A DNA stretch of 48,525 nucleotides from Lactobacillus hamsteri DSM 5661 = JCM 6256 (lineage in GTDB: Bacteria > Bacillota > Bacilli > Lactobacillales > Lactobacillaceae), in NCBI RefSeq assembly GCF_000615445.1, contig NZ_BALY01000011.1:1-48525 (forward strand). The letters are read 5' to 3'. The translations under genes and the position numbers were made by a program. The first letter of the stretch is position 1. Each line of letters begins with the position of its first letter. The notes beneath the pieces are model-generated. The model was not told the origin of the DNA. It did no database searches and saw only the letters and a program-made list of their open reading frames with translations. This document shows, piece by piece, positions 5,158 to 37,429 of the stretch.

Positions 5158-5170
5158 GTTTGCTACGCTC

Positions 5171-5737: not shown

Positions 5738-5749
5738 AGAAACACCTCA

Positions 5750-7330: not shown

Positions 7331-7342
7331 GCTCTTTTTCTC

Positions 7343-9642: not shown

Positions 9643-9650
9643 CCTTTCTT

Positions 9651-10055: not shown

Positions 10056-11107
10056 TGCTTGCCTACTTTCATTTCTAACTTAACCATGTAATCCGTTCCA
10101 AATTCATGCGTAGCTTTAAGAATCGGACAATCTGAAAGCTTCTTTTTCATATCTTTCAAATAAACCGTAACTGCATTACCAGCTACTAAACTTAAATCTC
10201 CTTTAGTAGTAATACTTAGTTTTTTATTTGCCACATTTTTTTGTTTAAGCACGCTCTTAGCTTGTGCCATCATTTGAGCTTGTGTGGCTTTAGACTTTTT
10301 GGGCTTTACAATTTGCAACTTTCCCCACTGCTCAACGCTTTTTCCTTGAGCGCTAGTAGAACTGAAGCTTGTATTACTTGGAGTTTCTTTATCCGAGTTT
10401 CCTTTAGCTGTGGCACTTGAAGTTTGAGACTTTTTCTTATCCTTCTGAACAACTTTTACCACGTTGGCTGTATTTTCAATATCCACGGAATAGGTGAAAT
10501 CCGTTACTACTGTTCGAGTATCAACAACGATTTTTAACTTCTTATAAGGGGCACGCCTTAGCTCAACCTTGTCATAATTTGCAGCAACAAAATACATATG
10601 GTCAGTAGATTGATAAGTTTTATTAATTGCTGTTTTTAGCATGTCAAAGTAAGTTTTACCATCACATATTTCGGCCGCTACTTTATGAGTTGGTGCATTT
10701 TTAACGCTATGTGATAGCCCTGCTCGCTTACATACTTCATTAAATCGGTCAGCCACTGTATTTGTCTTAAATACAATGGAGTCCTCATTCTTTAAGTATC
10801 TAAGTTTGTCATAACAAGTTACGCTAATAGTTCGATCACCTGTAAACTCATACTTAAATACGTAACCATAAAAAACCTTTTCTTTATTCCATCGGAAAGT
10901 TATGATGTCTCCCGTATAAGGGATGACCAGTTGATCAAGTGGTTCAATTAAATCAAAAGTAAGTTCACCTGCACTTAGATTCATGTCAGTAGTCCAAACA
11001 ATATTCTTGACATTGTTCTTTAAATCATATCCCGTGCCTTTAGGATTTTTAGTAGAATTGCGAAAAAGATTAGAACGCCTGAAAAGATGAAAAGTAGTAA
11101 CTGTCAT
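10034..11107 (-). CDS. Tail hub protein (XkdQ/gpD-like)
   Basis: 357 residues. The N-terminal half (WTTDMNLSAGELTFDLIEP, IPYTGDIITFRW, VTCYDKLRYLKNED, RFNEVCKRAGL) resembles the gp27/late-control-D hub fold that caps the tail tube. A low-complexity Ser/Lys/Thr linker follows at about 225-260 and a C-terminal domain (LSLVAGNAVTVYLKDMKKKL) ends it. It lies between the XkdP-like and DUF2577 genes as in PBSX. The end of the XkdP-like gene overlaps the start by 4 bp. Confidence 0.88.
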   Translation of the reverse strand: MTVTTFHLFRRSNLFRNSTKNPKGTGYDLKNNVKNIVWTTDMNLSAGELTFDLIEPLDQLVIPYTGDIITFRWNKEKVFYGYVFKYEFTGDRTISVTCYDKLRYLKNEDSIVFKTNTVADRFNEVCKRAGLSHSVKNAPTHKVAAEICDGKTYFDMLKTAINKTYQSTDHMYFVAANYDKVELRRAPYKKLKIVVDTRTVVTDFTYSVDIENTANVVKVVQKDKKKSQTSSATAKGNSDKETPSNTSFSSTSAQGKSVEQWGKLQIVKPKKSKATQAQMMAQAKSVLKQKNVANKKLSITTKGDLSLVAGNAVTVYLKDMKKKLSDCPILKATHEFGTDYMVKLEMKVGKQWQESKS

Positions 11108-11793
11108 GCTCTTTTCACCTCCGACATCTTAACCCAACCTCTAGCAACTCCATTAATACCAACGCAAACTGGATATTCACGTCCTGGAGCTATATATATG
11201 ACCTCACGCTCAGCGTTCTTTTCATACATTCCTGCCCCTTGACCATAGCTGTCTGCATGAAGCCTACCAGAAACTTTCACTTTAGAACCAATGCTGATTT
11301 TTTTAGCTGGCGTTGATCTTTTCTTAGTTTTCTTTTTAGTCTTTTTTTTTAGTTTTTTTTGATTTTTTTTATAAGAAAATTTTCGATATTGTTTTAGTTC
11401 TAGAGTATAGATGTATTCAGAAGTATTTCCATTTCGCATTGAGTATGTAAACTTAGCAATTGTCATTAAAAGACTGATTTTAGTACCTGAAATCACTACT
11501 CGCACTTTATGTTGTTCTTCTTGAATGTCTTTAATATCTTCAATGTAATCTTCAGGGCTTTGCAAATCATCTGTACTGACGTAATGTCCATCAAATTCTG
11601 GGAAAAATGATTCGATAGTTAAACTTGTTAGTTTCAAATGTCCAACGGTATTAACTTCGCCCAAGTTGATAACAGTTTCGGACTTATCATCAGTTTCATA
11701 GCTCAATTCTACTTGCGCTGGATTAACTGGTAGCTCGATTTGTGTACCACTAGTTTGATCAGTTATATAAATTGCATAACCATTCATTGGCAT
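11104..11793 (-). CDS. XkdP-like tail protein
   Basis: 229 residues. The N-terminal part (PVNPAQVELSYETDDKSETV, LTSLTIESFFPEF) has the LysM-region architecture of XkdP/YqbP proteins, which sit between tape measure and hub. A strongly basic run of about 20 residues, nearly all Lys (around 143-165), separates it from a C-terminal SH3-like region (GSKVKVSGRLHADSYGQG, YPVCVGINGVARGWVKMSE). The C-terminal part may bind wall sugar or baseplate partners; that is inference. Confidence 0.82.
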   Translation of the reverse strand: MPMNGYAIYITDQTSGTQIELPVNPAQVELSYETDDKSETVINLGEVNTVGHLKLTSLTIESFFPEFDGHYVSTDDLQSPEDYIEDIKDIQEEQHKVRVVISGTKISLLMTIAKFTYSMRNGNTSEYIYTLELKQYRKFSYKKNQKKLKKKTKKKTKKRSTPAKKISIGSKVKVSGRLHADSYGQGAGMYEKNAEREVIYIAPGREYPVCVGINGVARGWVKMSEVKRA

Positions 11794-11811
11794 TTTTAAT
11801 CACCTACTTAC

Positions 11812-14811
11812 TTAAACTAAGGACTTATCATCTGCATGGATGATTTCCAATTCCAATTCTCGAAGAATTGCCTTCACGTCAGTTTTGGCATCGCCCGTGC
11901 TATTAACGACAATAGCGCCTTGAGATATGGTAACTTTCCGGTTATCGATATTACTTGTTCCATTCTGATAATTACTGGTAGTCACTGTATTAGGGGTAAT
12001 TGTATTAGATGAAATTGCATTCGAGTTTTGTCCCCAATTGTAGCCATTACCTCTATTAGCACCGATATTTGGTGTAGCTGATGCAACCAATCCTGTTCCA
12101 GCTTTAGCTAGTAAATTAGCTGTGCCATTCATACCGATGGCCATACCTTCACCCATGTAAGTACCGATTTCAGCAAAAAGCTTAGATGGTGAGTGAACTT
12201 GCGCTTTAGCTCTAGCTGCTCGGTTTGCTTGTGCTACTAAAGCATCAGCAGCTGCAGCTACTGCTCCAATTTGGGATCTAATACCTGAAGCCAAGCCTTG
12301 ACCAATTGCAGCACCTACACTGTACATCGCACTAGCTCCAGCTCTACCAGCAGCCACCGCTTGATTAATAGCACCACGCACTGCACTAGCTAAAGCAGCT
12401 CCTCCAGCTCTAGCTGCAGCTGCAGCTCTTGCCATTCCTGATCGAACCGCTGCCACAACGCCACTCATATTTGGTCTGCCAACTTTAGGTGCTGGGATCT
12501 TACCCAATTTTGGTAGCTTAGGCTTAGGAACTACCGGTCTACCAACTTTAGGTGCTGGTATTTTTTTTAGCTTTGGTGACTTTGGTGTAGGAATCTTTGG
12601 TTTGCCTACCTTTGGGGCTTTAATTGTTTTAAGTTTTGGTGATGAAGGTGTTGGAATTTTTGGCTTGCCAACTTTAGGAGCTTTAATTGTAGGAAGCTTT
12701 GGAGATTTTGGTATGTCATACTTAACAGCAACTTTTTGAATAACCTTTTGCCCTGAAAATTGCTTATTAGGGCTTGATGTATCAACTTGCATTTTAGCTT
12801 TAAAGCCTTTTTGATTGTCCAAAGCATGGATTTGTTTGTTAATGCTAGAAACATCAAATTGAGTGTCAATTTTAACTTTTTGACCTTTGCCCAAGTTTGC
12901 TAATTGTGAGTTAGCTTTAGCTATATCTACTTGTGGGCTGATCTTTGTGTTATTAACTTTGTCGGCAGCTTGTTGTGCAGAATCTCCCATTTGATAGAAC
13001 TGTTTCACCATGTTCGCAGTAACACCATTACCAACTGCATTACCAATATTGCCTACAGCATTCTTCAAATTACCGAACGCATTAGCTGCATCTTGAATAT
13101 CACGCTTTGCTCCAGAAAAATTGCCAGTCATTGCATCGCCCAAAGCGTGCATACTTTGTACAATTCCCTTTACAGCAAATCCTACCGCTGAAGCTATGGA
13201 GATAAGACTTGTAAATGCATCGACAATCACACCAATTCCCAAAGCAACGCCCATCAAAGCAGCTCCGCCTATAGTACCTAGTGCTTGGCCTATTCCTGAC
13301 AAGACAGGAGCTAACGGAGCGGCCGCAGCTTGTAATTGACTAAAGGCAGTGGCTAGTGGCTGTAATCCTTGTGAAATTGCTGAAAATACTGTTGAAACAG
13401 TAGCAGCAATATTCTCAAAGATAGGCCCAATAAGTGCGATAGCACCATCTATGAGTGTGCTTATTAACGGAGCAATTGTAGTGATGACAGTAGATATCGT
13501 ATTAATCACATTCTGGATAACTGGCATCACCATTTGGAAAGCTTGCCCTAATGCACTTCCAATAGATGAAAATACTGGCATCAATGAATTTAAAGCGTTA
13601 AAAATAGCTGATATCACTGTATCAATTACTGGCAAGATGGCGTTAAGACCATTACCAAGAGCTTGGCCAATATTTCCGAAAAGGTTCCCACCGCCTATCT
13701 CATTAAGTTGACTAAAGCTGTCTTTGATCGTTGATACTATGTTTTGAATAGTGCTTCCGATGTTACTAAAGGCACCCGTACTGGAGAAGCCTTTAAACAT
13801 CTGATCCCAACCTTTACTTACTGTTGAAAACAGTGGCGTAAGATCAGTAATTGTCTTTTTTACACCATCAAAGATTGCGTCAATGTCAATCTTTTTCATG
13901 GCACCAACTAGCTTGTCAGTAATTCCATCTAAGTTTAAATCACCTAAATGATCCGTAAGTTTAGAAACCCAGTCAATACCTACTTTTCCGACCTTATCAA
14001 AAGCTGGTTGCAATTTATTGGCTAAGGTTTCTTTCAAACCATCCATCGCTTGACCAACAGTTTTATATTGAGTGGCCATTTTACTGAAATTAGCGTTATT
14101 ACCAGTTTTAGTAATCGCATCAAAGAAATCTTGAGTCTCTACCTTGCTATCTTGAACATCTTTAATCAGTTGTTGTGTACTTTTGCCCATTGACTTAGCA
14201 ACGGCTGCTATACCAGCTGGAGTCTGCTCAAGCATCAATTTAAAGTCTTGCCATTGAACTTTAGGCTTAGCGGCCATCTGAGTAGCTTGCTCACTCAAGG
14301 TCTTCATAGCTTGTTGAGGATTAGTTGCGGCTGCAGCCAAACCACCAAAACCTTTAACTAGCTGAGCAGTATTTTTAGTACCAACTGCTTCAAGTTGACT
14401 GTAAGTGTTACTCATATCTGAAGAACTATAGATTGTTTGCTCAGCAAACCTCTGCATTGAAGTTTTAGCAGCTTGAATCTGAGCTGGGCTTTTGCCTAGT
14501 TGTCTCATGTTACCTTCAAAAGTCTGCCATGATGTTGATGATTCATTCAGTTCGCTAACCATAGACCTAATTCCGGATGCTGCTAATCCCATCCCCTTGC
14601 TAATCGCATTACCTATGAGTTGGCCACCCACTATGCTCTTCATAAGGCCTGTAGTTTTTCCAGTTAAACTACCCATATCATTGTTGGTGCCACTTAATCT
14701 GCTTTTTAATTTTGAAAAACCAGATTGTGTCTGTGACAGCCCAGATGAAAGTTTATTTAATGCACTACTAAAAGCATCGTTAATTCTAATCGTTGCACTT
14801 ATTTCAGGCAT
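11812..14811 (-). CDS. Tail tape measure protein
   Basis: 999 residues, the longest gene of the prophage. It sets tail length and passes through the tube during DNA ejection. The N-terminal region is coiled (NKLSSGLSQTQSGFSKLKSRL) and has the TMP family core (WQTFEGNMRQLGKSPAQIQAAKTSMQRFAEQTIYSSSDMS). Hydrophobic helices are seen at about 375-540. A Pro/Lys repeat hinge follows at about 700-785, and the C-terminus has an Ala-rich helix and the GMAIGMNG motif with VHSPSKLFAEIG, common at TMP ends. It lies between the tail chaperone genes and the XkdP-like gene. A strong hairpin terminator stands just upstream. Confidence 0.93.
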   Translation of the reverse strand: MPEISATIRINDAFSSALNKLSSGLSQTQSGFSKLKSRLSGTNNDMGSLTGKTTGLMKSIVGGQLIGNAISKGMGLAASGIRSMVSELNESSTSWQTFEGNMRQLGKSPAQIQAAKTSMQRFAEQTIYSSSDMSNTYSQLEAVGTKNTAQLVKGFGGLAAAATNPQQAMKTLSEQATQMAAKPKVQWQDFKLMLEQTPAGIAAVAKSMGKSTQQLIKDVQDSKVETQDFFDAITKTGNNANFSKMATQYKTVGQAMDGLKETLANKLQPAFDKVGKVGIDWVSKLTDHLGDLNLDGITDKLVGAMKKIDIDAIFDGVKKTITDLTPLFSTVSKGWDQMFKGFSSTGAFSNIGSTIQNIVSTIKDSFSQLNEIGGGNLFGNIGQALGNGLNAILPVIDTVISAIFNALNSLMPVFSSIGSALGQAFQMVMPVIQNVINTISTVITTIAPLISTLIDGAIALIGPIFENIAATVSTVFSAISQGLQPLATAFSQLQAAAAPLAPVLSGIGQALGTIGGAALMGVALGIGVIVDAFTSLISIASAVGFAVKGIVQSMHALGDAMTGNFSGAKRDIQDAANAFGNLKNAVGNIGNAVGNGVTANMVKQFYQMGDSAQQAADKVNNTKISPQVDIAKANSQLANLGKGQKVKIDTQFDVSSINKQIHALDNQKGFKAKMQVDTSSPNKQFSGQKVIQKVAVKYDIPKSPKLPTIKAPKVGKPKIPTPSSPKLKTIKAPKVGKPKIPTPKSPKLKKIPAPKVGRPVVPKPKLPKLGKIPAPKVGRPNMSGVVAAVRSGMARAAAAARAGGAALASAVRGAINQAVAAGRAGASAMYSVGAAIGQGLASGIRSQIGAVAAAADALVAQANRAARAKAQVHSPSKLFAEIGTYMGEGMAIGMNGTANLLAKAGTGLVASATPNIGANRGNGYNWGQNSNAISSNTITPNTVTTSNYQNGTSNIDNRKVTISQGAIVVNSTGDAKTDVKAILRELELEIIHADDKSLV
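12463..12715 (-). repeat. Pro/Lys repeat hinge inside the tape measure gene
   Basis: In-frame tandem repeats of about 20-23 codons encode APKVG[KR]P-x-[IV]P-x-P-x-[SL]PKLK units. Four to five units are recognisable on the minus strand, the unit at 12600-12680 being the cleanest. A rigid or extended linker within the tape measure is the likely product; unit number could vary between relatives. Confidence 0.75.
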
Positions 14812-14840
14812 ACTCTACCTCCTTCCATTCGTTTAGATAC

Positions 14841-14897
14841 AAAAAAAGAAGGCACAAGTCTTCATACTAAAAACTAGTACTGCGACTTGGCCTTCCT
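14841..14897 (-). terminator. Terminator hairpin between tail chaperone and tape measure genes
   Basis: On the minus strand GAAGGCCAAGTC pairs with GACTTGTGCCTTC, one bulged base, about 23-base loop, followed at once by seven T. It looks like a complete intrinsic terminator. It overlaps the stop codon of the frameshifted chaperone and ends 30 bp before the tape measure ATG. It probably lowers read-through into the tape measure gene. Confidence 0.75.
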
Positions 14898-15481
14898 TTC
14901 TAATTCTTTTTGTTGATGTTTTTCGTTTTTTTGTCTTACTTCTATTGAAGCTATAACTATGTCTTGCTCTCTTCGAGAAAGCTTAGCCCACTCAGCAGGT
15001 GTCCAGTGGTATTCATTTAAAACGTAATGATATATTGCAAAGTCACCTACTGAGTCTTCAATTAGTTTTTTACTGTTTCGATAACATCCTGATTGCTTTC
15101 ATCCAAACCGGATAATTTCATAACTGCATTTACTAAAGCGGCAAACTCACCAGCAGTAAGCATATGAGTTAAAGTGCCGTAAGGGTCACCAATCGTACCA
15201 TATGCTTTTTGTAATTCAGCACTGTTAAGATTTGGTGTTACTACACTTTCGGTAACATACAAGCTAGTTAATTTTTCTTGATCAAGTCTAGAATCATAAA
15301 TTCTAGTTTTTTCGTTAAAAATTTTAGTTGTAGCTTCTTTTTGTAATTCAAGAGTTTGACCAGCCATCAAAGACTTAATCTTAAATGGCGCCTTAAATCT
15401 TTTGAATTTAATCTCTTCAGTTTTAATAGCCTCTTCCGTTGTAGCAGATGGTAAAAAATCTTTAACGTTTGGTTCTTCCAT
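14874..15481 (-). CDS. Tail assembly chaperone, long form made by -1 frameshift
   Basis: The 139-residue short chaperone ends right after a classical slippery heptamer. Slipping back one base there opens a second frame that adds 63 residues (LIEDSVGDFAIYHYVLNEYH at its start, KAKSQY at its end) and stops at 14874. The total is about 202 residues. This mirrors lambda gpG/gpGT and the equivalent gene pairs upstream of tape measure genes in most long-tailed phages, where both forms wrap the tape measure during tail assembly. The extension has no start codon or Shine-Dalgarno of its own and lies in the correct position. The frameshift itself is inferred, not shown. Confidence 0.8.
15062..15481 (-). 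CDS. Tail assembly chaperone, short form (XkdN-like)
   Basis: 139 residues, gene placed between tail tube and tape measure, the slot of XkdN/gpG-type chaperones. Sequence such as FKRFKAPFKIKSLMAGQTLELQKEAT and LTSLYVTESVVTPNLNSAELQKAYG fits the XkdN family (compact helical chaperone with a minimal-core domain). The reading frame ends GTA AAA AAC TAA, which carries the slippery site used for the long form. Confidence 0.87.
   Translation of the reverse strand: MEEPNVKDFLPSATTEEAIKTEEIKFKRFKAPFKIKSLMAGQTLELQKEATTKIFNEKTRIYDSRLDQEKLTSLYVTESVVTPNLNSAELQKAYGTIGDPYGTLTHMLTAGEFAALVNAVMKLSGLDESNQDVIETVKN
15065..15071 (-). promoter_or_regulatory. -1 ribosomal frameshift slippery site
   Basis: A AAA AAC in the zero frame of the chaperone gene, one codon before its stop TAA. 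It has the X XXY YYZ form, and both tRNAs can re-pair after a -1 slip. The -1 frame downstream is open for 63 codons. I see no obvious strong pseudoknot immediately after it. Confidence 0.8.
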
Positions 15482-15498
15482 AATAAATACCTCTCAAA

Positions 15499-15999
15499 TT
15501 AGTAAGTTTGCAAGTAACTTCTGTTAATTGCATCTACACCATCAAATGGTTTGATAAGAGTTACACCTTCAAATGTAAAATCACATTCGTTAGTCATAAC
15601 ATTGTCCTTAGCTTCAATATCAGCAATTGGAATTTCATCAAGGTTCACATAATCAAGTTGGATGATTTGTTTTCCTGCTGCAGAAGTTGGATCATCCACA
15701 GTGAATGTAAGAGAGAAGTACAAATCTCCTTTTTCTTGTGTAAATGGAATACCCTTTTTAATCCACTTAGAGTCAATTGTGTATTCACCTAAAGTACCAG
15801 TACCTTCAGCACTAGTAGTCTTCTTCATAGTCCAATTATTGCCTAAAACTTGAACATCTTCCTTATGCTTTTTAATGGTAGCTTTAAACTTTTTACATTG
15901 AATAACTGGGATAATTTCTCCGTTGATATTAACTACAACTTGTGCAGATTTTGAATTAATGGTATCTCTACCAGATAAAAATTTTTCTACATTTTCCAT
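15499..15999 (-). CDS. Tail tube protein (XkdM-like)
   Basis: 166 residues, the inner tube of the contractile tail, placed right after the sheath gene as in PBSX (XkdK-XkdM). Beta-rich sequence with INGEIIPVIQCKKFKATIKKHKED, VQVLGNNWTMKKTTSAEGTGTLG and the C-terminal DAINRSYLQTY fits the phage tail tube family (DUF2001). Confidence 0.9.
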   Translation of the reverse strand: MENVEKFLSGRDTINSKSAQVVVNINGEIIPVIQCKKFKATIKKHKEDVQVLGNNWTMKKTTSAEGTGTLGEYTIDSKWIKKGIPFTQEKGDLYFSLTFTVDDPTSAAGKQIIQLDYVNLDEIPIADIEAKDNVMTNECDFTFEGVTLIKPFDGVDAINRSYLQTY

Positions 16000-16011
16000 T
16001 AATTATTCCTC

Positions 16012-17352
16012 CTAACGTACAGTAATAGTTACGTAAAGTTTTTCCATTGCATCGACAGGTTGGACAGCCAAATTCATAACTACCGCATCGCTATCATTAC
16101 CTGGTAAAATTTCCAAATCACCAGGTTCAAAGTTTTGAATGATGTTTTGGCTTTGCAATTTTTCCAAATATGATGTGCGATCAGCCTTAAATAAGCCACG
16201 GCCATTGTCATTATTAGGAACTCTACCTAAAAAACTACTTTCAAAGACTTGTTGAGTATTAATGCAAATTTCATCAAGAACTCTAATAATTTTGTTCTTA
16301 GAGAATGATTTAGGCTTATCAGCATTAAACTTAGTTAAAGTATCCAAGTCTTGTTCAATTACAACTCTATTGTGACTACGAGTAGTAAATACAATTTCGC
16401 CAGCTGTTAAAGCATTAACAGTCTCATCGTTATTAAGTCTAGGCTTTGAATCAATTGCATCATCAATGTCTTTGTACGTTAATGCTGTAGCTGCATCTGC
16501 ACTAGCAGACATACCAGCAAAGCGAGCAGTAGCAGTTGGTACATCAATTACTTCACCAGTATTTAAAACATAGCCATTTTTAACACCAGATAAGCCTTCA
16601 TAGTTGTAAGCCATATCTTTAGAATTAGGAACAACGCCACGAACCTTAATACCAATATTTTCACGCAACCGCTTAATTTGTTCTGCGAATAATTGATGAA
16701 TATTACTTTCTTCATCCCAACCAGCAGTAGTAGCAACTGTATAATATTCGCTTTCCAATGCTTCATTCATCTTATCTACTACATTATTAGTACCATCAGT
16801 ACCACCAGTTAATGTAAAAGTATTTGAGCCTACTATATCTTTCTTAGTAGCTAATTGCTTAAAAGTAACGTAGTAATTGTCTTCTACATCTTCAATGCTT
16901 GCTACTTTTTGCTGATCTACCATTTTTGTACCAAAAATAGTGGTTACGGTTAAAGAAGAGTTATCTGCTGCAGGATCAATAGAAACTTTAATGTTATTAC
17001 CTACTGTACCTTCGTATTTCGCCATAATTTCTACTGGCAATTCATCTCCAGTAGCTTTGGCTTTTACACCGCCTTGAGTAGTATTTACAAGTAAAACAGT
17101 TTCTGCGCCTTTAAGTGCTTCCTTAACTGGTGCCATGATTGGATCACTGAGTTTGTGACCTGTTTCTGCTTCAAAATCTGAATTGTTATCTAAAGTGATA
17201 ACGCCATTCTTACCCCAACCAAGAGGTTTATTTTGAAACATCAAAAGTCGACCAATAGCACTAGTGAGGGTAGGCTTACCGTTTCCTTTAACATTAATAT
17301 AAACACCAGGTCTTACTTTGTTTTGTGCTTTCCAAGTTCCACCAGCCATCAT
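16012..17352 (-). CDS. Tail sheath protein (XkdK-like)
   Basis: 446 residues. The N-terminal WKAQNKVRPGVYINVKGNG is the hallmark of contractile sheath proteins, and the C-terminal part with LDEICINTQQVFESSFLGRVPNNDNGR and a final beta strand region fits the sheath C-domain that links neighbouring subunits. It makes this a myovirus-type tail. The start overlaps the stop of the small upstream gene as TAATG; a second ATG follows directly. Confidence 0.94.
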   Translation of the reverse strand: MMAGGTWKAQNKVRPGVYINVKGNGKPTLTSAIGRLLMFQNKPLGWGKNGVITLDNNSDFEAETGHKLSDPIMAPVKEALKGAETVLLVNTTQGGVKAKATGDELPVEIMAKYEGTVGNNIKVSIDPAADNSSLTVTTIFGTKMVDQQKVASIEDVEDNYYVTFKQLATKKDIVGSNTFTLTGGTDGTNNVVDKMNEALESEYYTVATTAGWDEESNIHQLFAEQIKRLRENIGIKVRGVVPNSKDMAYNYEGLSGVKNGYVLNTGEVIDVPTATARFAGMSASADAATALTYKDIDDAIDSKPRLNNDETVNALTAGEIVFTTRSHNRVVIEQDLDTLTKFNADKPKSFSKNKIIRVLDEICINTQQVFESSFLGRVPNNDNGRGLFKADRTSYLEKLQSQNIIQNFEPGDLEILPGNDSDAVVMNLAVQPVDAMEKLYVTITVR

Positions 17353-17531
17353 TAAAATCCTTTCTTAAATTCTTCAATTGCTTTTTTAGCTTCAGGAATT
17401 GTGTATTCCTTTCCGTCTTTCAAAACAATATTCATAATGTCTTTTTCTGTTGTAGTAAAATTACCAGCCATTAAACCTACCTTAGTAAACTTAGGTTCTT
17501 TATTGCTGGTCTTGTTTCTTACTTCTCTCAT
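17352..17531 (-). CDS. Small conserved-position protein before the sheath gene
   Basis: 59-residue frame starting MREVRNKTSNKEPKFT and ending AIEEFKKGF. An AGGAG lies 11 bases before the ATG. It overlaps the preceding gene end by 32 bp and the sheath start by 1 bp, so it is translated in the operon. An internal ATG (MAGNFTTTEKD) is an alternative start. No family recognised. It occupies the place of small pre-sheath genes in related clusters. Confidence 0.6.
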   Translation of the reverse strand: MREVRNKTSNKEPKFTKVGLMAGNFTTTEKDIMNIVLKDGKEYTIPEAKKAIEEFKKGF

Positions 17532-17925
17532 TTATATCTAAGCTCCTTTGCATAGACACATCATCCACTCTGTACATGTTGAGCAATATATCAAAGCTCA
17601 CTGTCAAAGTTTCTTCTTTTTGATCCAGATTAAACTCACGATTCCGGATAGTCGCATAAGTCCCCAATCTCACGAAATTATCTGCTAGTAGATCATGAAC
17701 GTGATCCATATCAGCATTAGGACAATCGGGATTAGCAAAATAAACAACTTGATAAGATACAGTACGATCTTGAATAGCAAATAAGCGACTATTAATGCTC
17801 GTCATAGTTCTAACAATATAGAAACTAGGAACATCAAAGCCGCTAGACTGATTTTCTGTATAAATTGTTATATCCGGAAAGATTTCAGCTAATCTGTTTG
17901 CAATTCGTTCTGTTGTATTTTCCAT
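17500..17925 (-). CDS. Tail terminator / completion protein (YqbJ-like)
   Basis: 141 residues. TERIANRLAEIFPDITIYTENQSSGFDVPSFYI and the beta-rich middle (YQVVYFANPD) resemble phage tail terminator proteins (DUF6838/YqbJ type) that cap the head-proximal end of the tail. It is located between the gp10-like gene and the sheath. Start overlaps the previous stop by 1 bp. Confidence 0.78.
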   Translation of the reverse strand: MENTTERIANRLAEIFPDITIYTENQSSGFDVPSFYIVRTMTSINSRLFAIQDRTVSYQVVYFANPDCPNADMDHVHDLLADNFVRLGTYATIRNREFNLDQKEETLTVSFDILLNMYRVDDVSMQRSLDINERSKKQDQQ

Positions 17926-18326
17926 TAGCTTAAAATATCTCTAAAAGCCCACAAGCCTGGGGTAATTAGCTCTGGTAGTTGGCTATTTACCTGATCTAGT
18001 GATTCTTTCATAAAGAATTGTCCTGGCACCCATCCTGTATGTTCACAGGTTTTGTGGCCATTTTCAACATACGAAGCATACTCCGCACCGTTTGTTAACT
18101 CAATTGACCAGGAACCACCAATGAAGCCAGCATCTTGAACACGCCAGCATCGTCTTAAGTGACCAGTATCTTCTGGAGTATTTGCTTTGAACTGTCTGAT
18201 TGCTTGCTTACCTATACGTTTCACACTTCTAGTCAGTTCTTTTTTCAATTCTCCTGTGTCAATTCTTCTTTTCACACGATTAGCCCATGCTTGAAATTGC
18301 TCATCATCCACTCTACCGATGGCCAT
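17925..18326 (-). CDS. HK97 gp10-like tail-completion / joining protein (XkdI-like)
   Basis: 133 residues. NTPEDTGHLRRCW in the middle and YASYVENGHKT are the two classic segments of the HK97 gp10/XkdI family, which works at the head-tail junction. Its start overlaps the previous stop by one base. Confidence 0.88.
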   Translation of the reverse strand: MAIGRVDDEQFQAWANRVKRRIDTGELKKELTRSVKRIGKQAIRQFKANTPEDTGHLRRCWRVQDAGFIGGSWSIELTNGAEYASYVENGHKTCEHTGWVPGQFFMKESLDQVNSQLPELITPGLWAFRDILS

Positions 18327-19095: not shown

Positions 19096-19302
19096 TTACT
19101 TTACCAATGCTAAAAGATCATCTTTCAAGGTTTTGCCTGTATAATCAATACCTTTAGCATCTAAGTAAGCTTTGATTTCAGAAATTTTGCTATCCTTAGT
19201 TGGTTTAGGCAATTCTTCTACCTTAGAATTCTCTTCAGTAGATTCATCAGCCTTTTCTACATTAAGAGAAGTTTCTTCCTTATCCTTCGGATTTACTCGC
19301 AT
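19096..19302 (-). CDS. Small protein with C-terminal HeH/SAP-like domain (YqbF-like)
   Basis: About 68 residues. The C-terminal 35 (ISEIKAYLDAKGIDYTGKTL then KDDLLALVK) form a HeH/LEM-like helix-extension-helix, a small nucleic-acid or protein-binding fold found in YqbF and phage head-joining proteins. The N-terminal part is an acidic linker. I chose the ATG giving MRVNPKD because AGGCGG lies 8 bases before it; longer starts are open. It overlaps the major capsid gene end by 23 bp. Confidence 0.7.
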   Translation of the reverse strand: MRVNPKDKEETSLNVEKADESTEENSKVEELPKPTKDSKISEIKAYLDAKGIDYTGKTLKDDLLALVK

Positions 19303-20284
19303 CTCCATTACCGCCTGCTGGTGGATTTTCATTGGAGTCTTCTTTCTTTTTGCCAAACTTTGATGAGTCAGCTAAGTCTTTAACACCAGTAGCATCACCA
19401 ATAACTACTTCATAACCTTTAGTCTTATTGCTTAACATTAAAACGTCATCATAAGATTGTTCGTAGTACAAGTAATTACCAGAACTTGCAGCAGTAGGAG
19501 CATCGAAACCTACAAAAGAGTACTTTTCAGGAGCAATTTGAACACCGTTGTAAATCAAGAACATTTCAATTTGCTTAGCATCTGCTTTAAGAGCTGATCC
19601 TGTAGTAAAGTCAAATGCAGTTTGCATTAAATCTGAAGGAACCATCTTAACAGTTACTTCATCAAGTGAGTGAACAGTACGAGTGATGTTAGATGGATCA
19701 GAAACAACAATCGCACGGTTCATAGCATCTGCACGCTTTAAGATTGAATTTGTCTTAGGAGTTACATACAAGATACGTCCTTGAGCCGGAATACGAGCTT
19801 CATCGAAGTTGCTCATCATTTCATCAAATAACTTAAGAATATTACTTTCATCAAGTGATTCAGTATGAACACCATCGGTACCATCATATTTAACTTTTTG
19901 TTTATACAACTTAGAGAACATTTCACGATCCTTTTCAGGCATCTTAGAATCTAAGTTAAATTGACGTGTAATGTTAGCAATAGATACAACTGTATTAGTT
20001 TCATCAATATCTGATGGATCTACTAAAGTTGACCAGTAACGTTCATTAGTTAATTCATAGCTATCCCAATCATTTGAGTAGTTAGCTTCTGGAACTGTAA
20101 TAGCTCTACGAGTACGGTCTTTACGACCTGCAGTAATCGTTAAGCGTGGTACCTTAATATGCTTTGCACCATCGAATTGAACCATTGAGTTAGATGGTGA
20201 ATTCCATAAGTCCGCACTGTATAAGTTACCGTCATAAAAAGATTGTTGTACCGCTTGTTGGTACGCTTCAGCATAATTAATCAT
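19280..20284 (-). CDS. Major capsid protein (XkdG/YqbE-like)
   Basis: 334 residues, the usual size for this family, directly after the scaffold gene. INYAEAYQQAVQQSFYDGNLYSADLWNSPS at the N-terminus, ITAGRKDRTRR, and GRILYVTPKTNSILKRADAMNR in the middle fit the XkdG-type HK97-fold capsid proteins. The last 20 residues are a hydrophilic tail rich in Gly, Asn and Ser. Confidence 0.9.
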   Translation of the reverse strand: MINYAEAYQQAVQQSFYDGNLYSADLWNSPSNSMVQFDGAKHIKVPRLTITAGRKDRTRRAITVPEANYSNDWDSYELTNERYWSTLVDPSDIDETNTVVSIANITRQFNLDSKMPEKDREMFSKLYKQKVKYDGTDGVHTESLDESNILKLFDEMMSNFDEARIPAQGRILYVTPKTNSILKRADAMNRAIVVSDPSNITRTVHSLDEVTVKMVPSDLMQTAFDFTTGSALKADAKQIEMFLIYNGVQIAPEKYSFVGFDAPTAASSGNYLYYEQSYDDVLMLSNKTKGYEVVIGDATGVKDLADSSKFGKKKEDSNENPPAGGNGDASKSEG

Positions 20285-20832
20285 TAGTTGGCTCCTCCTT
20301 TAAAAACATCGACCATTTCTTGAATTTCGTTAGTACCAGAAGGCTTTCCGCTATTAGGTTCATAATCCTGTTTTTTACCTTCATCAATTAAGTAAGGTGC
20401 TTGTTCCTTAACTCGATTGAATTGATCATCAAAATTATCTAAAGAACCGTCATCTTTAAGCTTGATATTATCTAAGTTCATCAATGACTTAAAAGCGGTA
20501 TTGTTGCGAACATGGTTCTTAGTAAGAGCTTGATCAATAGCGCTATTAAGCTTAACTTTGCCTAGTTCTTCAGTAAGGTTTTCCTTGGCTTGTTTGTACT
20601 TGCCTTGAAGGTCAGCTAATTGATTAGATAGTTCTTCGCTATCCTTAGCATTTTTCTTCAATGAAGTAATATCTTTATCTCTTTCAGCTAATTGGGCCTT
20701 GAGAGATTCATTCTCCTTTACTGTTTCAGCATTATTAGACTTCGCTTTATTGATATCTTCTCCGTTAAGATTCATAACAGATTTAATCTGTTCTTCTGAT
20801 AGACCTAACTCTTTTAATTGATCTCTTTTCAT
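20284..20832 (-). CDS. Scaffold protein (phage GP20 / XkdF region)
   Basis: 182 residues, almost all coiled coil from about 25 to 110 (repeated Lys/Glu heptads), then a compact C-terminus (ALTKNHVRNNTAFKSLMNLDNIKLKDDGSLD), the pattern of minor structural GP20 scaffold proteins. It lies immediately before the major capsid gene, sharing one base. It would guide procapsid assembly and be lost from mature heads. Confidence 0.88.
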   Translation of the reverse strand: MKRDQLKELGLSEEQIKSVMNLNGEDINKAKSNNAETVKENESLKAQLAERDKDITSLKKNAKDSEELSNQLADLQGKYKQAKENLTEELGKVKLNSAIDQALTKNHVRNNTAFKSLMNLDNIKLKDDGSLDNFDDQFNRVKEQAPYLIDEGKKQDYEPNSGKPSGTNEIQEMVDVFKGGAN

Positions 20833-20935
20833 AATTCCAATATCCTCTCTGTCTCTAACGTACTTTTTACGTGCTTACACCACAACGAGACCTGCGAACA
20901 GTTTTACGTCTTAACGCATAAATTGGACAAAATAA
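20833..20935 (-). promoter_or_regulatory. Structured leader before the scaffold and capsid genes
   Basis: About 100 non-coding bases between an intrinsic terminator and the scaffold start. On the minus strand GTCTC pairs with GAGAC over a distance of about 30 bases, and ACGTA pairs with TACGT as a small inner hairpin. The Shine-Dalgarno region GAGAGGA lies inside or next to the outer stem. No convincing promoter was found. It may be a translation control or RNA stability element; this is inference. Confidence 0.35.
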
Positions 20936-20968
20936 AAGAGAATCGCAAATTTTTAACGATTCTCTTTA
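20934..20968 (-). terminator. Terminator-like hairpin between minor head and scaffold genes
   Basis: AAGAGAATCG pairs perfectly with CGATTCTCTT, 11-base loop, followed on the minus strand by TTATTTT. It overlaps the last codons of the small gene at 20953. It would partly separate transcription of the portal/minor head genes from the capsid genes. Confidence 0.7.
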
Positions 20969-21117
20969 CTATCAATATCTTTAATTAGGCTTTTACTCAG
21001 TTTTATTTTTTCTTTCAGCTCTTGATGGGATTTTGTTTTAAAACTACTAATTGGTATATTTTTTATAAGGTTATGAAGATTATCAAGATTTACTGGCACC
21101 TTTTCATTTTTCTTCAT
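20953..21117 (-). CDS. Small basic hypothetical protein
   Basis: 54 residues from MKKNEKVPVNLDNLHNLIKN to the end DIDSKENR. Mainly helical and lysine-rich. The start ATG lies inside the last codons of the minor head gene (overlap 14 bp) with GGAAGTGG upstream. No family recognised. It might be a head protein companion, or an antidote to the adjacent ADP-ribosyltransferase domain; the second idea rests only on position. Confidence 0.55.
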   Translation of the reverse strand: MKKNEKVPVNLDNLHNLIKNIPISSFKTKSHQELKEKIKLSKSLIKDIDSKENR

Positions 21118-22684
21118 CTTCGACCACTTCCAAGAAGATTTTATCATCTTTCATATAACAATTAGTAACAATAAACTTAGTGTTTCTCTTAAACAAAACT
21201 TCATTTTCACCATTAGGGCTATACTTTCCTAAATCACTACCAGAATGACTTTTGCGAATTATGATTCTAACATTGTCATCATCATTATATACGCTATGCT
21301 TGCTACTGGAAAAATAACTTTTTTCTTGGATGTATCCGTTAGTCAATGCTTGCTTAACGAAATTTTCTTCATCATCTGGGTACATAAATAATATTGATCT
21401 TTGTAACGGTTCATCATCTGAATAAGTAGGAAGTTTTTCCAAAGCACTGTCTAAGTTATTGATCAAAGTTTTTTCACGATTAGTTAATTTTAAACCTCTT
21501 CTTAAATTATCATTCAAAGCATAAGCAACAGGAGAAGTGTAGTCCCTTATTGCTCGAACCTCATTCAAATTTAGCGTGTTTGATTTAAGCAACTTTGTAA
21601 AACTTTCAAGCCTTAGTGGTTTCACATTATGAGCTTGTTTGAATTCTTTCAAAGTCATTGCGTGAGTATTATTAGCATGAGCCCACTCTTTGTAAGTTTG
21701 ATTCTTTACTAATCTTCCCTTGCCAGTAATTGGATCACGCTCCCAACGAGAAATAATATCCGGTAATGTTTCATCATAAGGAATAGTTGTGCACCTGCAA
21801 TAAGGATGAATTAGAGGATAGTTTAAGCCTTCCACTCTATCCTTAACTTTAAACACTTTTTCATCTAAATGAGCACATTGATCACAAGTATGACTCTCAA
21901 GAGTTGCTAAATACTGATATTTCTCAATTTTGCTATCTTCATAAAACTGAGCAGTAGCAGTTTCTGTCGCATGTCCCATTTCAGTAATAACGAGTCTGTG
22001 AACATTTTTTTGTTCAAAGTTCGTAAAACGATCACGAATATCTTTTTCAATTCTGGAATAAGAATATCCCATCAATGTTCCTCTAAGCAGTGTATCAGTA
22101 AGCACATCAGGCAAAACTTTTGTATAGTTATTCCAAACTCTATTACTAAAGTTACTCCCTTGCCACGGTTGATACACAATATTCTTGAGCTGCTGCTCAC
22201 TAAAGTTAGCGAAATTAATATCAAATCCACCAATTGCCAAATATCTAATGTATTGATCCATTGTATAAGTGTCTTGATACTGCTTAGCTAACCTTAGAGC
22301 AAATCTATTCTCTTCTTTATCAGCATACTTAATAGCAAATTGAGAAAACTGATCATATAATTTCTGAAGCCTTGCAATACGACTTTTATAATATGATGAA
22401 TTAAGTTCACGATCATAGCCACCGGCTCTTGCTTTGGCTTCAAATTCCTGAAGAGTCATATCCCATTTACTGGTATCGATTGACTTTAAATATTTTGCAG
22501 CATTTTCAATATTCTCATTATTCGCCTTAGCATAAAGAGATATATACTTATAAGCTTCTTTTTCAAATTCAGTTTCTAGTTGCTTAAGACGTGATCTCAT
22601 GGCCATCTCATAGTCAGCACTATACTCAATTTGTTTCTTCTTTTCATAAAGAACTCGTTGACGCCAGTACTTTTGACTATTCAT
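21104..22684 (-). CDS. Minor head protein (SPP1 gp7/Mu F-like) fused to an ADP-ribosyltransferase domain
   Basis: 526 residues. Residues 1-340 are the phage minor head family: helical N-terminus, VITEMGHATETATAQFYED, and the zinc-type cluster TCDQCAHLDEKVF then HPYCRCTTIPY. Residues about 360-526 show the three-part motif of R-S-E ADP-ribosyltransferases: an Arg in LQRSILF (about 429), a serine triplet in SYFSSSKHS (about 459-461) and an E-x-E in NGENEVLFKRNTKFIV (E493, E495), with IRDYTSPVAYALNDNLRRG before them. Such enzymes transfer ADP-ribose from NAD to a target. A few copies per head could be injected with the DNA and modify host proteins. The gene lies after the portal gene, as gp7 does. 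Confidence 0.87.
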   Translation of the reverse strand: MNSQKYWRQRVLYEKKKQIEYSADYEMAMRSRLKQLETEFEKEAYKYISLYAKANNENIENAAKYLKSIDTSKWDMTLQEFEAKARAGGYDRELNSSYYKSRIARLQKLYDQFSQFAIKYADKEENRFALRLAKQYQDTYTMDQYIRYLAIGGFDINFANFSEQQLKNIVYQPWQGSNFSNRVWNNYTKVLPDVLTDTLLRGTLMGYSYSRIEKDIRDRFTNFEQKNVHRLVITEMGHATETATAQFYEDSKIEKYQYLATLESHTCDQCAHLDEKVFKVKDRVEGLNYPLIHPYCRCTTIPYDETLPDIISRWERDPITGKGRLVKNQTYKEWAHANNTHAMTLKEFKQAHNVKPLRLESFTKLLKSNTLNLNEVRAIRDYTSPVAYALNDNLRRGLKLTNREKTLINNLDSALEKLPTYSDDEPLQRSILFMYPDDEENFVKQALTNGYIQEKSYFSSSKHSVYNDDDNVRIIIRKSHSGSDLGKYSPNGENEVLFKRNTKFIVTNCYMKDDKIFLEVVEDEEK

Positions 22685-24119
22685 TGCTTATTTCCTCAGT
22701 ATTCTCATCATCCTGCTCGTCTTTATCAGGATTAGTAGGTTTAAAGTCTGAACCGAAACCATCACTTTCTTCAGCATCTTGCTTTTGATATTCAAGTTCT
22801 TGTTGGTAATCTTCAACGATTGGATTAGCCTTAGCGATTGCTTCCCTACTTGACCAGTTAGCGACAGTTGCAACGGTTTGAGCTTGTGTTAAATCATCTT
22901 CTGTACGAGTACGAGTCCAAGTTTGAACAATGTGCCTACCTTCAGAATCAGACAGGCCATAGAATCTCATAATGGCTCTCACTAGTTCACTAACAGATCT
23001 CTTGAAGTAGGTAATCGTATTACTTGCTTTGAGTTCCAAATGAGAATAGAGCATTTTAATAGCAACTCCTGAAGCATTTGTATCAGCAAAGTTAGCTGGA
23101 TCAATACCTTGACCTTGTAAAAAGATATTACTCTTAGTTAAGGTAAGTATTTTATCTCTTGCTTCTGTTGGTATTTCAATTTGCAGCGTTTCTACACCAG
23201 ATTGATCACCGTTACCAGAATTATTGATTTTAATAGCTTTATTTTCATTAAGATCGTGCATAAACTTCTTTAAATCCGCACCACCATAGTTCTTTAAGAC
23301 AAGAACAACAGATTGGATATCATCAACATCATTGAGAAAGCCATTATATACATCATCATAAGCATCAATTAGGCCTTTAATTTTGTGTAATTCAGGTAAT
23401 CTTTGCTTATTTTTAGGAAATTCGATAAATGGAACTCTACCGAAATCGTGTTTAAAAATATTGCTCCGACCAGTTTCATAACCTGCAGTAGCATCTCTTT
23501 CAGAAATACAGTTAAAAGGCTCAAGCGTTAAAGGGTTAGTTGTAACTTCCTTAAAGAAATAGCCGAATTTATCATCCCAATACTCATGGACTCTAAAATA
23601 TTTGCCTGTATCTGGATCTAGTTGCTTGTAGGCTCTTAATACGGCTAGTAATTTATGATCCAGTGAAGTAGACCAAATAGGTGTTACTTGATCTGGTGGA
23701 ACAATTCCATAACGCAATATATTATTAGTTTTATCTTTCCAGTATGTTAACCATCCTCTACCAGCGTTAGAAGCATCAACAACTAGATCATTGATAGTTA
23801 AAGCAAAGTCATCACCTAAAGCATCTATAATCTTTTGATTGTCATTTTTATTGCCTACATCAATTTGAGGAGGATTAGTGGCAATATAACCTGCTTCTTG
23901 ATCTACCAATAACTGATAGAAATTGTGACTAATTCTATTGTCAGCATGTCTTAGCGGTTCATCTTTCCCGTGCTTATTAACCTTAGATTCGCCATTGTTT
24001 CGACTAGTTATATCATTCTTGTTGTTGTAATACTTCTTTGATTTCTCATATCTATTTATGAAATCTGATTGATTGTTATTGTATTGCTTAATCAATTCTT
24101 GCATCTGCTTTAATTCCAA
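22677..24119 (-). CDS. Portal protein (SPP1 gp6-like)
   Basis: 480 residues, usual length for this portal family. RISHNFYQLLVDQEAGYIATNPPQI, GRGWLTYWKD, RVPFIEFPKNK and GLIDAYDDVYNGFLNDVDDI are recognisable portal segments. The final 60 residues are a hydrophilic Asp/Glu-rich tail. The dodecameric portal is the DNA channel of the head. Overlaps both terL and the minor head gene by a few bases. Confidence 0.92.
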   Translation of the reverse strand: MELKQMQELIKQYNNNQSDFINRYEKSKKYYNNKNDITSRNNGESKVNKHGKDEPLRHADNRISHNFYQLLVDQEAGYIATNPPQIDVGNKNDNQKIIDALGDDFALTINDLVVDASNAGRGWLTYWKDKTNNILRYGIVPPDQVTPIWSTSLDHKLLAVLRAYKQLDPDTGKYFRVHEYWDDKFGYFFKEVTTNPLTLEPFNCISERDATAGYETGRSNIFKHDFGRVPFIEFPKNKQRLPELHKIKGLIDAYDDVYNGFLNDVDDIQSVVLVLKNYGGADLKKFMHDLNENKAIKINNSGNGDQSGVETLQIEIPTEARDKILTLTKSNIFLQGQGIDPANFADTNASGVAIKMLYSHLELKASNTITYFKRSVSELVRAIMRFYGLSDSEGRHIVQTWTRTRTEDDLTQAQTVATVANWSSREAIAKANPIVEDYQQELEYQKQDAEESDGFGSDFKPTNPDKDEQDDENTEEISNE

Positions 24120-25844: not shown

Positions 25845-25998
25845 ATCTATCTCACCACCTACTTTTTAATGCAAAATGAAAAAGCCGGCTTATGCCAACT
25901 TAAATTCATTAATTTTCTCTTAATTGTTTAGATATTACTAATATTGCTCTTTTTGTAAGTTTATATCTATGAACTACACCGGGGCTCTAATCCGGCAA

Positions 25999-26070
25999 TT
26001 GCCGAGATGAGATTTGAACTCATACCATCAACCTTATGAGAGTTGTAAGCGACCATCGCTTTGCTCGGCG
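25999..26070 (-). tRNA. tRNA-Met-like gene (anticodon CAT)
   Basis: The 72 bases fold into a full cloverleaf on the minus strand. Acceptor CGCCGAG/CTCGGCA pairs in six of seven places; the first pair is C-A, the mismatch typical of initiator tRNA. The D-arm is AAGC-GATGGTC-GCTT. The anticodon arm is CAACT-CTCATAA-GGTTG with U33 and CAU at 34-36. Variable loop ATGGT. The T-arm is ATGAG-TTCAAAT-CTCAT. CCA is not encoded. Position 8 is C, not the usual U, and the anticodon stem lacks the three G-C pairs of initiators. It could be a phage tRNA-Met or a tRNA-Ile2 read by CAU. Confidence 0.7.
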
Positions 26071-26277
26071 ATAAAAGTACTGAGCAGTTAACAAGAACCC
26101 ATATTGAATTTAAATTTTTACGAAGTGATACTCAGTACTAATAAATGCTACTTCGCTAGGAATTTAAGCATTACTCCCTAGCGAATGATCTTTAAATTTA
26201 AAGTTGGACGACCAGCCAACTAACCCAATTAACAGAGACGACGAATTATCAATCAATCAAACAAACATACAGAATTT

Positions 26278-34929: not shown

Positions 34930-34944
34930 ACAGGAGGCGCTAAA

Positions 34945-37401: not shown

Positions 37402-37429
37402 AATAAAAACTAGAAAGGAGGTGAACTAT

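What the first reader, a model, noticed from the sequence alone, without database searches (positions are those of the whole stretch)
21104..21610. Minor head protein carries a C-terminal ADP-ribosyltransferase domain
The last 160 residues of the gp7/Mu F-type head protein show the R-S-E triad pattern (Arg about 429, Ser triplet 459-461, E493-x-E495) of arginine-type ADP-ribosyltransferases. A virion-borne enzyme could be injected with the DNA and modify host proteins early in infection. Some phage head genes are known to have such fusions, but targets are mostly unstudied. The 54-residue gene just downstream might act with it.
Basis: partly seen in the sequence, partly recalled or inferred. 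Interest (0 to 1): 0.72.

Follow-up and report, generated by a model that had tools for sequence, protein, structure and literature searches.

The report
Phage head enzyme with probable antidote
A Lactobacillus prophage builds a protein-modifying enzyme onto one of its head proteins and carries, right behind it, a tiny gene that is probably its antidote; this is a new example of a known phage toxin family, and antidote-like genes found without their toxin in other genomes may protect cells against such phages.

Summary
ORF 21104-22684(-), 526 aa, is a MuF/gp7-type minor head protein (PF04233) with a C-terminal ADP-ribosyltransferase: PF03496 scores 31 bits against a cut-off of 23.4. The residue numbers given are exact. 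In 21 aligned domains S459, E493 and E495 are invariant and R429 is kept in 19. An AlphaFold model (pLDDT 84.8) matches ART toxins that have immunity partners best (8za7, 6dre).

It fits the described MuF polymorphic-toxin family. In Lactobacillus prophages the first ~335 residues are conserved while the C-terminus is exchanged (ART, Ntox50, Ntox24-like, others or none). Small downstream ORFs follow the toxin class: all 9 similar ORF pairs lie within one class, 0 of 90 across classes. The 54-aa gene is therefore most likely an immunity protein, binding rather than enzymatic. Delivery, target and neutralisation are inferred.

Beyond the finding: immunity-like ORFs also occur where the ART is broken or absent. 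One lies in a 7.5-kb satellite-like element, and truncated toxin-immunity cassettes lie together in some chromosomes. Main finding: new member of a known kind.

The parts
21104..22684 (-). minor head protein, MuF/SPP1 gp7 type, 526 aa, with C-terminal ADP-ribosyltransferase
   Evidence: an identical copy is in IMG/VR record 2700989155
21782..22102 (-). Phage_Mu_F domain, residues 195-301
   Evidence: PF04233 65.8 bits, E 7.1e-18; TIGR01641 E 5.7e-22
21152..21580 (-). ADP-ribosyltransferase domain, residues 369-511 (predicted fold covers about 370-526)
   Evidence: PF03496; AlphaFold pLDDT 84.8; Foldseek to 8za7, 6dre, C3, VIP2
21398..21400 (-). codon of Arg429, motif-1 arginine
   Evidence: Arg in 19 of 21 aligned domains; aligned with the Arg of 8za7, 2gwm and 6dre
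21308..21310 (-). codon of Ser459, first serine of the S-x-S motif
   Evidence: 21 of 21
21200..21208 (-). codons of Glu493-Asn494-Glu495, the E-x-E motif
   Evidence: E493 and E495 21 of 21
20953..21117 (-). 54-aa ORF overlapping the end of the toxin gene; probable cognate immunity protein
   Evidence: homologues beside ART in Lj771, jlb1 and other Lactobacillus loci; phrog_37770, unknown function, E 0.0027
20935..20967 (-). strong hairpin followed by a U-rich stretch at the end of the 54-aa ORF, terminator-like
   Evidence: MFE -17.3 kcal/mol, z -5.2; not listed by the simple terminator scan, whose loop limit is 8 nt while this loop has 9
20833..20930 (-). non-coding stretch before the scaffold gene, related to a conserved ~85-nt element at the downstream edge of the variable cassette in other phages; borders approximate
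   Evidence: no Rfam match at gathering threshold
22677..24119 (-). portal protein gene, directly upstream
   Evidence: about 50-70% identical in the Lactobacillus loci with a full-length MuF
20284..20832 (-). scaffold protein gene, conserved downstream border of the cassette
   Evidence: the name scaffold comes from annotated relatives

Best explanation
The gene makes a MuF polymorphic toxin. Residues 1 to ~335 build the protein into the virion head next to the portal; a probably flexible linker (about 339-368) joins this to an arginine-type mono-ADP-ribosyltransferase. On infection the protein, or its enzymatic end, would enter the new host with the DNA and use NAD to ADP-ribosylate host proteins. 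During late gene expression the 54-aa protein made from the overlapping downstream ORF would bind the enzyme and keep the producing cell working until particles are released. Shown here: domain identity, catalytic residues, fold, operon position, exchange of C-terminal domains, and matching of small ORF to toxin class. Inferred: catalysis, arginine target, packaging, injection, toxicity and neutralisation.
For: Profile and fold. Conserved active site. Position between portal and scaffold genes in a prophage. Polymorphism: portal, MuF 1-335 and scaffold conserved while the C-terminus is ART, Ntox50, Ntox24-like (below cut-off), other or none. Small ORF: 15 of 15 toxin-bearing loci examined have one of at least 52 aa starting within -60/+40 nt of the stop; ORF similarity follows toxin class (9 similar pairs, all within a class; 0 of 90 across; 0 of 20,000 permutations as good). 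Searches with the small ORF alone: of 8 strong relatives in 75 genus genomes 7 abut an ART or its remnant; leaving out the 4 that were seeds or copies of seeds, 3 of 4. Of 17 relatives of the wider KPYSDxRW type in 397 family genomes 13 have an ART piece at E<1e-3 directly upstream; leaving out 3 seed loci, 10 of 14. A 54-aa protein is too small for a hydrolase, and no ARH-type hydrolase (PF03747) was found in the own draft genome, which points to inhibition by binding. Literature: MuF toxins (PMC5576092, passages) and the MuF-ART toxin Bxa with the binding immunity protein Bsi (PMC11699363, abstract and passages).
Against: No biochemical or virion data. The full-length model has mean pLDDT 59.7 and is poor outside the ART part, so the head part rests on sequence. 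Within the ART class the small ORFs are not uniform: of the 6 pairs among the four Lactobacillus ART loci tested only 2 have BLAST-similar small ORFs. One MuF-ART relative (L059, G021) has no small ORF at its stop, and Streptococcus phage Javan1 has a 136-aa ORF there instead. Three of 17 KPYSDxRW-type ORFs and one of 8 strong relatives of the 54-aa protein lie beside no ART at all. The own genome has one Macro-domain gene that might reverse some ADP-ribosylation.
Confidence: 0.8

Rival explanations
1. Alt-like host-takeover enzyme: the injected ART modifies a specific host protein (for instance RNA polymerase) to favour the phage, is not a toxin in the antagonistic sense, and the small ORF is a packaging or assembly partner.
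For: T4 Alt is head-borne and injected, and PMC9503650 places Alt/VIP2-type ARTs fused to MuF among such effectors (passages). Foldseek against viral models finds RNA polymerase ADP-ribosyltransferases of T4-like phages.
Against: The closest solved folds are toxins with immunity partners (8za7, 6dre). The same MuF slot carries Ntox50 and an Ntox24-like domain, and the small ORF changes with the toxin, which a general assembly partner would not do.
Confidence: 0.25
2. Decoration without activity: the ART domain is a catalytically dead relic kept as a structural extension.
For: One truncated relative has Cys at the catalytic Arg position and another has His, so copies with an altered site exist.
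Against: In the window R429, S459, E493 and E495 are all present in an open 526-aa frame; S459, E493 and E495 are invariant in 21 rows.
Confidence: 0.05
3. The 54-aa ORF is an unrelated small phage gene that happens to lie there.
For: It is short, matches no Pfam or NCBIfam family and is unannotated in Lj771. Some MuF loci without a toxin also have a small ORF before the scaffold gene (L034, L036).
Against: Relatives found by searches with small ORFs alone lie mostly beside ARTs, and ORF families match toxin classes.
Confidence: 0.12

Closest known systems
MuF polymorphic toxins of temperate phages (PMC5576092, 2017)
   Same: MuF domain, gene directly after the portal gene, variable C-terminal toxin, small ORF downstream; [quoted passage not shown]
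   Different: Its main text has 0 occurrences of Lactobacillus, orphan or satellite; 'cassette' occurs once, about tailocins. Its supplements were not seen, so this gene may be in its tables.
Bxa of a Bacteroides stercoris prophage with immunity proteins Bsi and BAH (PMC11699363)
   Same: ART fused to the C-terminus of a MuF protein; small non-enzymatic immunity protein encoded next door
   Different: Different phylum; no ARH-type hydrolase found in this genome. Bxa has been tested in the laboratory, this one has not. The two proteins were not aligned here.
EFV toxin of an Enterococcus faecalis V583 prophage (as described in PMC5576092)
   Same: MuF1 protein of a Firmicutes prophage with ADP-ribosyltransferase activity
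   Different: Not compared directly; known here only through that paper's passage
ART toxins 6dre/6drh (Tre1, name recalled) and 8za7 (Lmo0066)
   Same: Closest solved folds (TMq 0.69-0.72, E about 1e-11) with aligned R, S-x-S and E-x-E; both solved as toxin-immunity pairs
   Different: Not fused to a phage head protein as far as I recall; Tre1 is a T6SS toxin (PMC11699363, passage); 24-29% identity
T4 Alt
   Same: Head-borne, injected phage ADP-ribosyltransferase (PMC9503650, PMC5512222, passages)
   Different: Stand-alone protein of a lytic phage (recalled); only fold-level similarity to T4-like enzymes seen

Membership tests
MuF polymorphic toxin | N-terminal MuF domain | tested here: met
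   PF04233 residues 195-301, 65.8 bits against cut-off 29.6
MuF polymorphic toxin | gene directly downstream of the portal gene in a packaging module | tested here: met
   portal 22677-24119, MuF 21104-22684, scaffold 20284-20832, all on the - strand; names from annotated relatives Lj771 and jlb1
MuF polymorphic toxin | temperate phage | tested here: met
   integrase-like ORF 37421-38632 and repressor-like ORF 34909-35289 between host-like genes (these names come from reading the sequences, not from a profile search)
MuF polymorphic toxin | conserved N-terminus with interchangeable C-terminal toxin domains | tested here: met
   22 loci: 15 with toxin-size C-termini of several unrelated classes, 7 short
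MuF polymorphic toxin | small ORF at the toxin's stop codon, specific to the toxin class | tested here: met
   exceptions are told under evidence against
MuF polymorphic toxin | toxicity and neutralisation by the immunity protein | not testable with these tools
   needs expression in a laboratory strain
R-S-E ADP-ribosyltransferase (PF03496 type) | significant profile match | tested here: met
   E 2e-7 on the whole protein, 1.1e-9 on the 168-aa piece, above cut-off
R-S-E ADP-ribosyltransferase (PF03496 type) | catalytic Arg, S-x-S and E-x-E | tested here: met
R-S-E ADP-ribosyltransferase (PF03496 type) | ART fold | tested here: met
   AlphaFold pLDDT 84.8 and pTM 0.76; 145 PDB matches with E<=0.001
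R-S-E ADP-ribosyltransferase (PF03496 type) | catalytic residues face one pocket | tested here: inconclusive
   coordinates not available; inferred from alignment to solved enzymes
R-S-E ADP-ribosyltransferase (PF03496 type) | NAD-dependent transfer to arginine | not testable with these tools
   biochemistry needed; E-x-E is only the motif usually linked to arginine (recalled)
Alt-type injected phage ADP-ribosyltransferase | carried in the virion and injected | not testable with these tools
   virion proteomics or translocation assay needed

The most novel reading that the evidence does not exclude
Immunity genes against virion-borne MuF-ART toxins have become stand-alone protection genes. They occur in Lactobacillaceae genomes where the toxin is broken or not found: in a phage-satellite-like element (G005), beside CRISPR-like arrays (G281, G120), and among truncated toxin-immunity cassettes lying together (G007, G009 and record G447, in the last on the same contig as a full-length MuF-ART gene). 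There they would blunt the injected enzyme of incoming phages, and the cassettes could also be a stock for recombination through the conserved MuF end and the conserved element before the scaffold gene.
Probability: 0.3. Interest if true: 0.75.

Novelty: new member of a known kind. Interest (0 to 1): 0.5.

Why it matters
[quoted passage not shown] This one has a clear catalytic site, a predicted 54-aa partner and relatives in named L. johnsonii and L. gasseri phages that can be worked with. If the small protein neutralises the enzyme, its toxin-free relatives, including one in a satellite-like element, would make protection against virion-delivered toxins directly testable.

Tried and rejected
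Head maturation protease: PHROG phrog_595 and the RefSeq versions of Lj771 and jlb1 call this protein a head maturation protease. The Pfam and NCBIfam scans of P0001 found no protease domain, and the C-terminal part of that PHROG (349-511 of 513) covers the ART, so the label is probably wrong.

A longer 64-aa start for the small ORF (21147) was considered. The 54-aa start (21117) aligns with the Lj771 relative's start and was preferred.

A promoter of its own for the small ORF: the scan gave 4 sites against 3.9 expected, so it is not evidence.

Full-length fold: the model was poor outside the ART part and was not used for the head domain.

The wide ART alignment A1 was too divergent for a genome-contig scan (error). 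A closer alignment A2 was used, so that collection was searched for near relatives only; 7 loci came back. A DNA alignment of the element before the scaffold gene had wrong minus-strand coordinates for several rows and was discarded; one search replaced it.

The four weak hits of the 54-aa profile (E 0.006-0.009; G030 twice, G029, G024) were taken as chance and not examined. The element before the scaffold gene gave only a weak consensus structure (-3.3 kcal/mol); its best co-varying pair (A-T in 13, C-G in 11, T-A in 1 of 25 sequences) may be few events, so no RNA claim is made.

Selections. Alignment A4 took 20 of the 24 loci L066-L089 besides the window; left out were L066 (identical to the window), L082 (same protein as L081) and L083 and L085 (broken or partial). 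The pairwise test took 22 loci; dropped were L039 (copy of L033), L037, L059, L064, L065 (other MuF types), and the truncated or partial loci L038, L056-L058 and L060-L063. Pfam was run on 10 C-terminal pieces. Seeds: profile A3 was built from four loci (window, Lj771, jlb1, G009), so 4 of its 8 strong hits (G000, G009, and the two G014 copies identical to jlb1) are not independent; profile A7 has three seeds from genomes in the searched set (G345, G086, G281).

Full report
WHAT IS THERE. The window holds a prophage (about 3.9-38.6 kb, borders by reading the ORFs) of a Lactobacillus, between host genes. On the minus strand lie the portal gene (22677-24119), a 526-aa minor head protein (21104-22684), a 54-aa ORF (20953-21117), the scaffold gene (20284-20832) and the major head gene (19280-20284) (names from annotated relatives). 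The head protein has Phage_Mu_F at residues 195-301 and ADPrib_exo_Tox at 369-511, both above Pfam's cut-off. NCBIfam gives the SPP1 gp7 domain.

THE ENZYME. An alignment of 21 ART domains (the window and 20 of 24 loci from IMG/VR and GTDB contigs) has S459, E493 and E495 invariant and Arg at 429 in 19 of 21. phmmer against PDB sequences aligns these residues with those of 8za7, 2gwm and 6dre. AlphaFold with this alignment gives pLDDT 84.8. Foldseek puts 8za7 (Listeria ART toxin with its immunity protein) and 6dre/6drh (ART toxin/immunity pair) first, then among others Certhrax, C3, Vis, XopAI and VIP2. In the viral library, MuF-like, portal and minor capsid proteins and RNA polymerase ADP-ribosyltransferases of T4-like phages are among the matches. 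Side-chain geometry could not be measured. In the full-length model the ART part is again confident and residues 339-368 are below pLDDT 50, as expected of a linker; the head part is poorly modelled.

THE SLOT IS POLYMORPHIC. Of 50,697 phage records, 391 hold a tblastn relative of the whole protein (E<=1e-5), but only 5 match it over 80% of its length, and only 6 hold a relative of the ART piece (E<=0.01). A search of 75 genus genomes finds a match in 26. There, 19 places match from the first residues of the protein, and in 16 of these the match ends by residue 373. Reading the loci shows portal, MuF N-terminus and scaffold conserved, with an exchangeable piece between. Besides ARTs (window, Lj771, phi jlb1, ESL0679) there are Ntox50 (L050), sub-cut-off matches to Ntox24 (L044) and DUF3626 (L047), C-termini without a significant Pfam family (L040, L041, L043, L053), and short proteins with little or no extension, such as KC5a. 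The ESL0679 protein (L048) has two extensions in series: a HEFCHH-containing piece without a Pfam match, then an ART.

THE SMALL ORF. Its ATG overlaps the last codons of the head gene. Relatives sit at the same place in Lj771 (not annotated there), in phi jlb1 (jlb1_030) and in other Lactobacillus loci. Over 22 loci with a full MuF N-terminus, 15 carry a toxin-size C-terminus and all 15 have an ORF of at least 52 aa starting within -60/+40 nt of the stop. Of the 7 short ones, 3 have none, 2 have a 66- or 83-aa ORF, 1 has a 39-aa ORF, and 1 has the detached remainder of a broken toxin. Of 105 pairs of toxin loci, 9 share both toxin and small-ORF similarity, 6 share the toxin only, 0 the small ORF only, 90 neither; no permutation in 20,000 did as well. 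Of the 6 toxin-only pairs, 4 are between ART loci, so the ORFs behind ARTs have diverged; the other 2 are weak toxin matches between classes.

Searching with the small ORF alone: in 75 genus genomes 12 places in 10 genomes pass E 0.01; 8 have E below 1e-4; 7 of these 8 abut an ART or its remnant and one does not (G005). Without seeds and their copies it is 3 of 4. Outside the genus, ten ART places with open frames of 416-500 aa were found in the family search; 6 of 10 are followed by an ORF of a KPYSDxRW type and the other 4 by different ORFs of 55-75 aa. The window's ORF resembles the C-terminal half of the longest of these; the 54-aa profile, built without them, reaches the G007 copy at E 6.9e-5. 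The KPYSDxRW profile finds 17 places in 12 of 397 genomes: 13 with an ART piece at E below 1e-3 directly upstream, 1 with a weak piece (E 0.022), 3 with none. The ART profile itself matches in 33 of 397 genomes, part of these in frames of about 300-360 aa without the MuF zinc-type motif.

MECHANISM. The best reading is a MuF polymorphic toxin: packaged by the MuF part, delivered with DNA, acting on host proteins by ADP-ribosylation, and held in check in the producing cell by the 54-aa protein. The size of that protein speaks against a hydrolase of the ARH kind, and none was found in the own draft genome, although it has one Macro-domain gene on another contig. Binding inhibition, as reported for Bsi with Bxa (PMC11699363) and IapK with Apk2 (PMC12226406), is the simplest mode. 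The pair ends in a strong hairpin with a U-rich tail (z -5.2), which would set it apart from the scaffold gene; the simple terminator scan did not list it.

WHAT IS KNOWN. MuF toxins, their small downstream ORFs and ARTs among them are in print: PMC5576092, PMC9503650, PMC5512222 and PMC3482391 (passages read), PMC11699363 and PMC12226406 (abstract and passages). The window's gene is a new member of that kind. PMC3482391 describes recombination of polymorphic toxins with standalone toxin cassettes in general and MuF toxins in prophage remnants, and PMC11699363 speculates that MuF loci may harbour extra immunity genes against non-cognate toxins; both bear on the orphan cassettes below. In PMC5576092, PMC11699363 and PMC12226406 the word orphan does not occur, nor satellite in the first two. 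Library searches listed no paper whose title or abstract start describes toxin-free MuF immunity genes (20 of 157 papers seen, 10 of 110, 2 of 3, 7 of 7). This is not proof of absence.

BEYOND THE FINDING. (a) In G005 a 54-aa relative stands without any ART piece (none at E<=1 in L132), in an element bounded by a 23-nt repeat at a tRNA-Gln gene (6233 and 13742 of L132), with integrase, HTH repressor and a D5/DUF5906 primase. Among the 8 proteins of L132 scanned no head, portal or tail family was found; a 112-aa HTH-like protein has a sub-cut-off match to Phage_Nu1. It looks like a satellite of about 7.5 kb. The MuF protein of the same genome has no toxin extension (L042). (b) In G007 a 16-kb stretch holds three truncated MuF pieces with different C-termini, each followed within 2 kb by a scaffold-gene fragment. 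G009 has two places with truncated MuF or ART pieces, one of them (L060) with a scaffold fragment. BLAST with the window's portal and major head proteins recognised neither in these three stretches. (c) IMG/VR record G447 has a full-length MuF-ART gene and, past an endolysin-like gene, two truncated cassettes (one ART, one like the C-terminus of L054) and a scaffold-endolysin-like fusion (names by reading). Truncated cassettes may thus be remnants of earlier prophages. In several remnants the small ORF is open while the ART is not (L135, L141, L143, L144, L148, L149; L141 and L148 are one region). Against a selection reading: small ORFs are short targets for mutation, truncation may simply have kept the 3' end, and in G007 the small ORF is itself interrupted. 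(d) Two small-ORF copies lie beside repeat arrays with 61- and 66-nt spacing that look like CRISPR arrays (L135, L163).

SCORE. The domain assignment is close to certain; the toxin-immunity reading is about 0.8. As a member of a described family the finding itself is of middling surprise; the toxin-free immunity-like genes raise the interest because they are directly testable.

Noticed in passing
L132 7481-7645(-) (G005:C1:1843000-1858000): A toxin-free relative of the 54-aa protein lies in a ~7.5-kb satellite-like element (integrase, repressor, D5-type primase, 23-nt repeat at tRNA-Gln), with no ART piece nearby.
   Followed up: partly
L058 (G007:C7:264000-280000), L056 and L060 (G009), L158 (record G447, 1-18000): Truncated MuF C-terminal toxin plus small-ORF cassettes lying together in chromosomes or past an endolysin-like gene; scaffold-gene fragments recognised in L058 and L060 and read by eye in L158, not found in L056.
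   Followed up: partly
window 20833-20930(-); 24 other sequences: A conserved ~85-nt non-coding element directly before the scaffold gene, at the downstream edge of the variable cassette; one short stem shows an A-T/C-G exchange; no Rfam match in the window. The window's copy is divergent.
   Followed up: partly
L135 (G281) and L163 (G120): A small-ORF copy with an ART remnant (L135) and one without toxin (L163) lie directly beside CRISPR-like repeat arrays.
   Followed up: partly
L070 / G447:C1:8297-8773 and G007:C7:275925-276425: Truncated ART copies with Cys at the catalytic Arg position; the small ORF behind is open in G447 and interrupted in G007.
   Followed up: partly
L048 (Lactobacillus sp. 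ESL0679), MuF protein of 848 aa: Two effector-like pieces in series on one MuF protein: a HEFCHH-containing piece (metallopeptidase-like by eye) and an ART, followed by two small ORFs.
   Followed up: no
L041, L049, L050, L052, L056: A second small gene in several cassettes looks like a YjcQ-family protein (PF09639 tested on the L041 copy only); role unknown.
   Followed up: no
window 658-2927 and 3877-4763: recJ-like and endolysin-like genes (by eye) are each split over two frames, either real decay or draft-assembly errors.
   Followed up: no
window 25998-26071(-): A tRNA-Met (CAT) gene inside the prophage, beside the small terminase gene.
   Followed up: no
PHROG phrog_595; RefSeq annotation of Lj771 and phi jlb1: The label 'head maturation protease' on MuF-ART proteins looks like a mis-annotation shared with the PHROG name.
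   Followed up: partly
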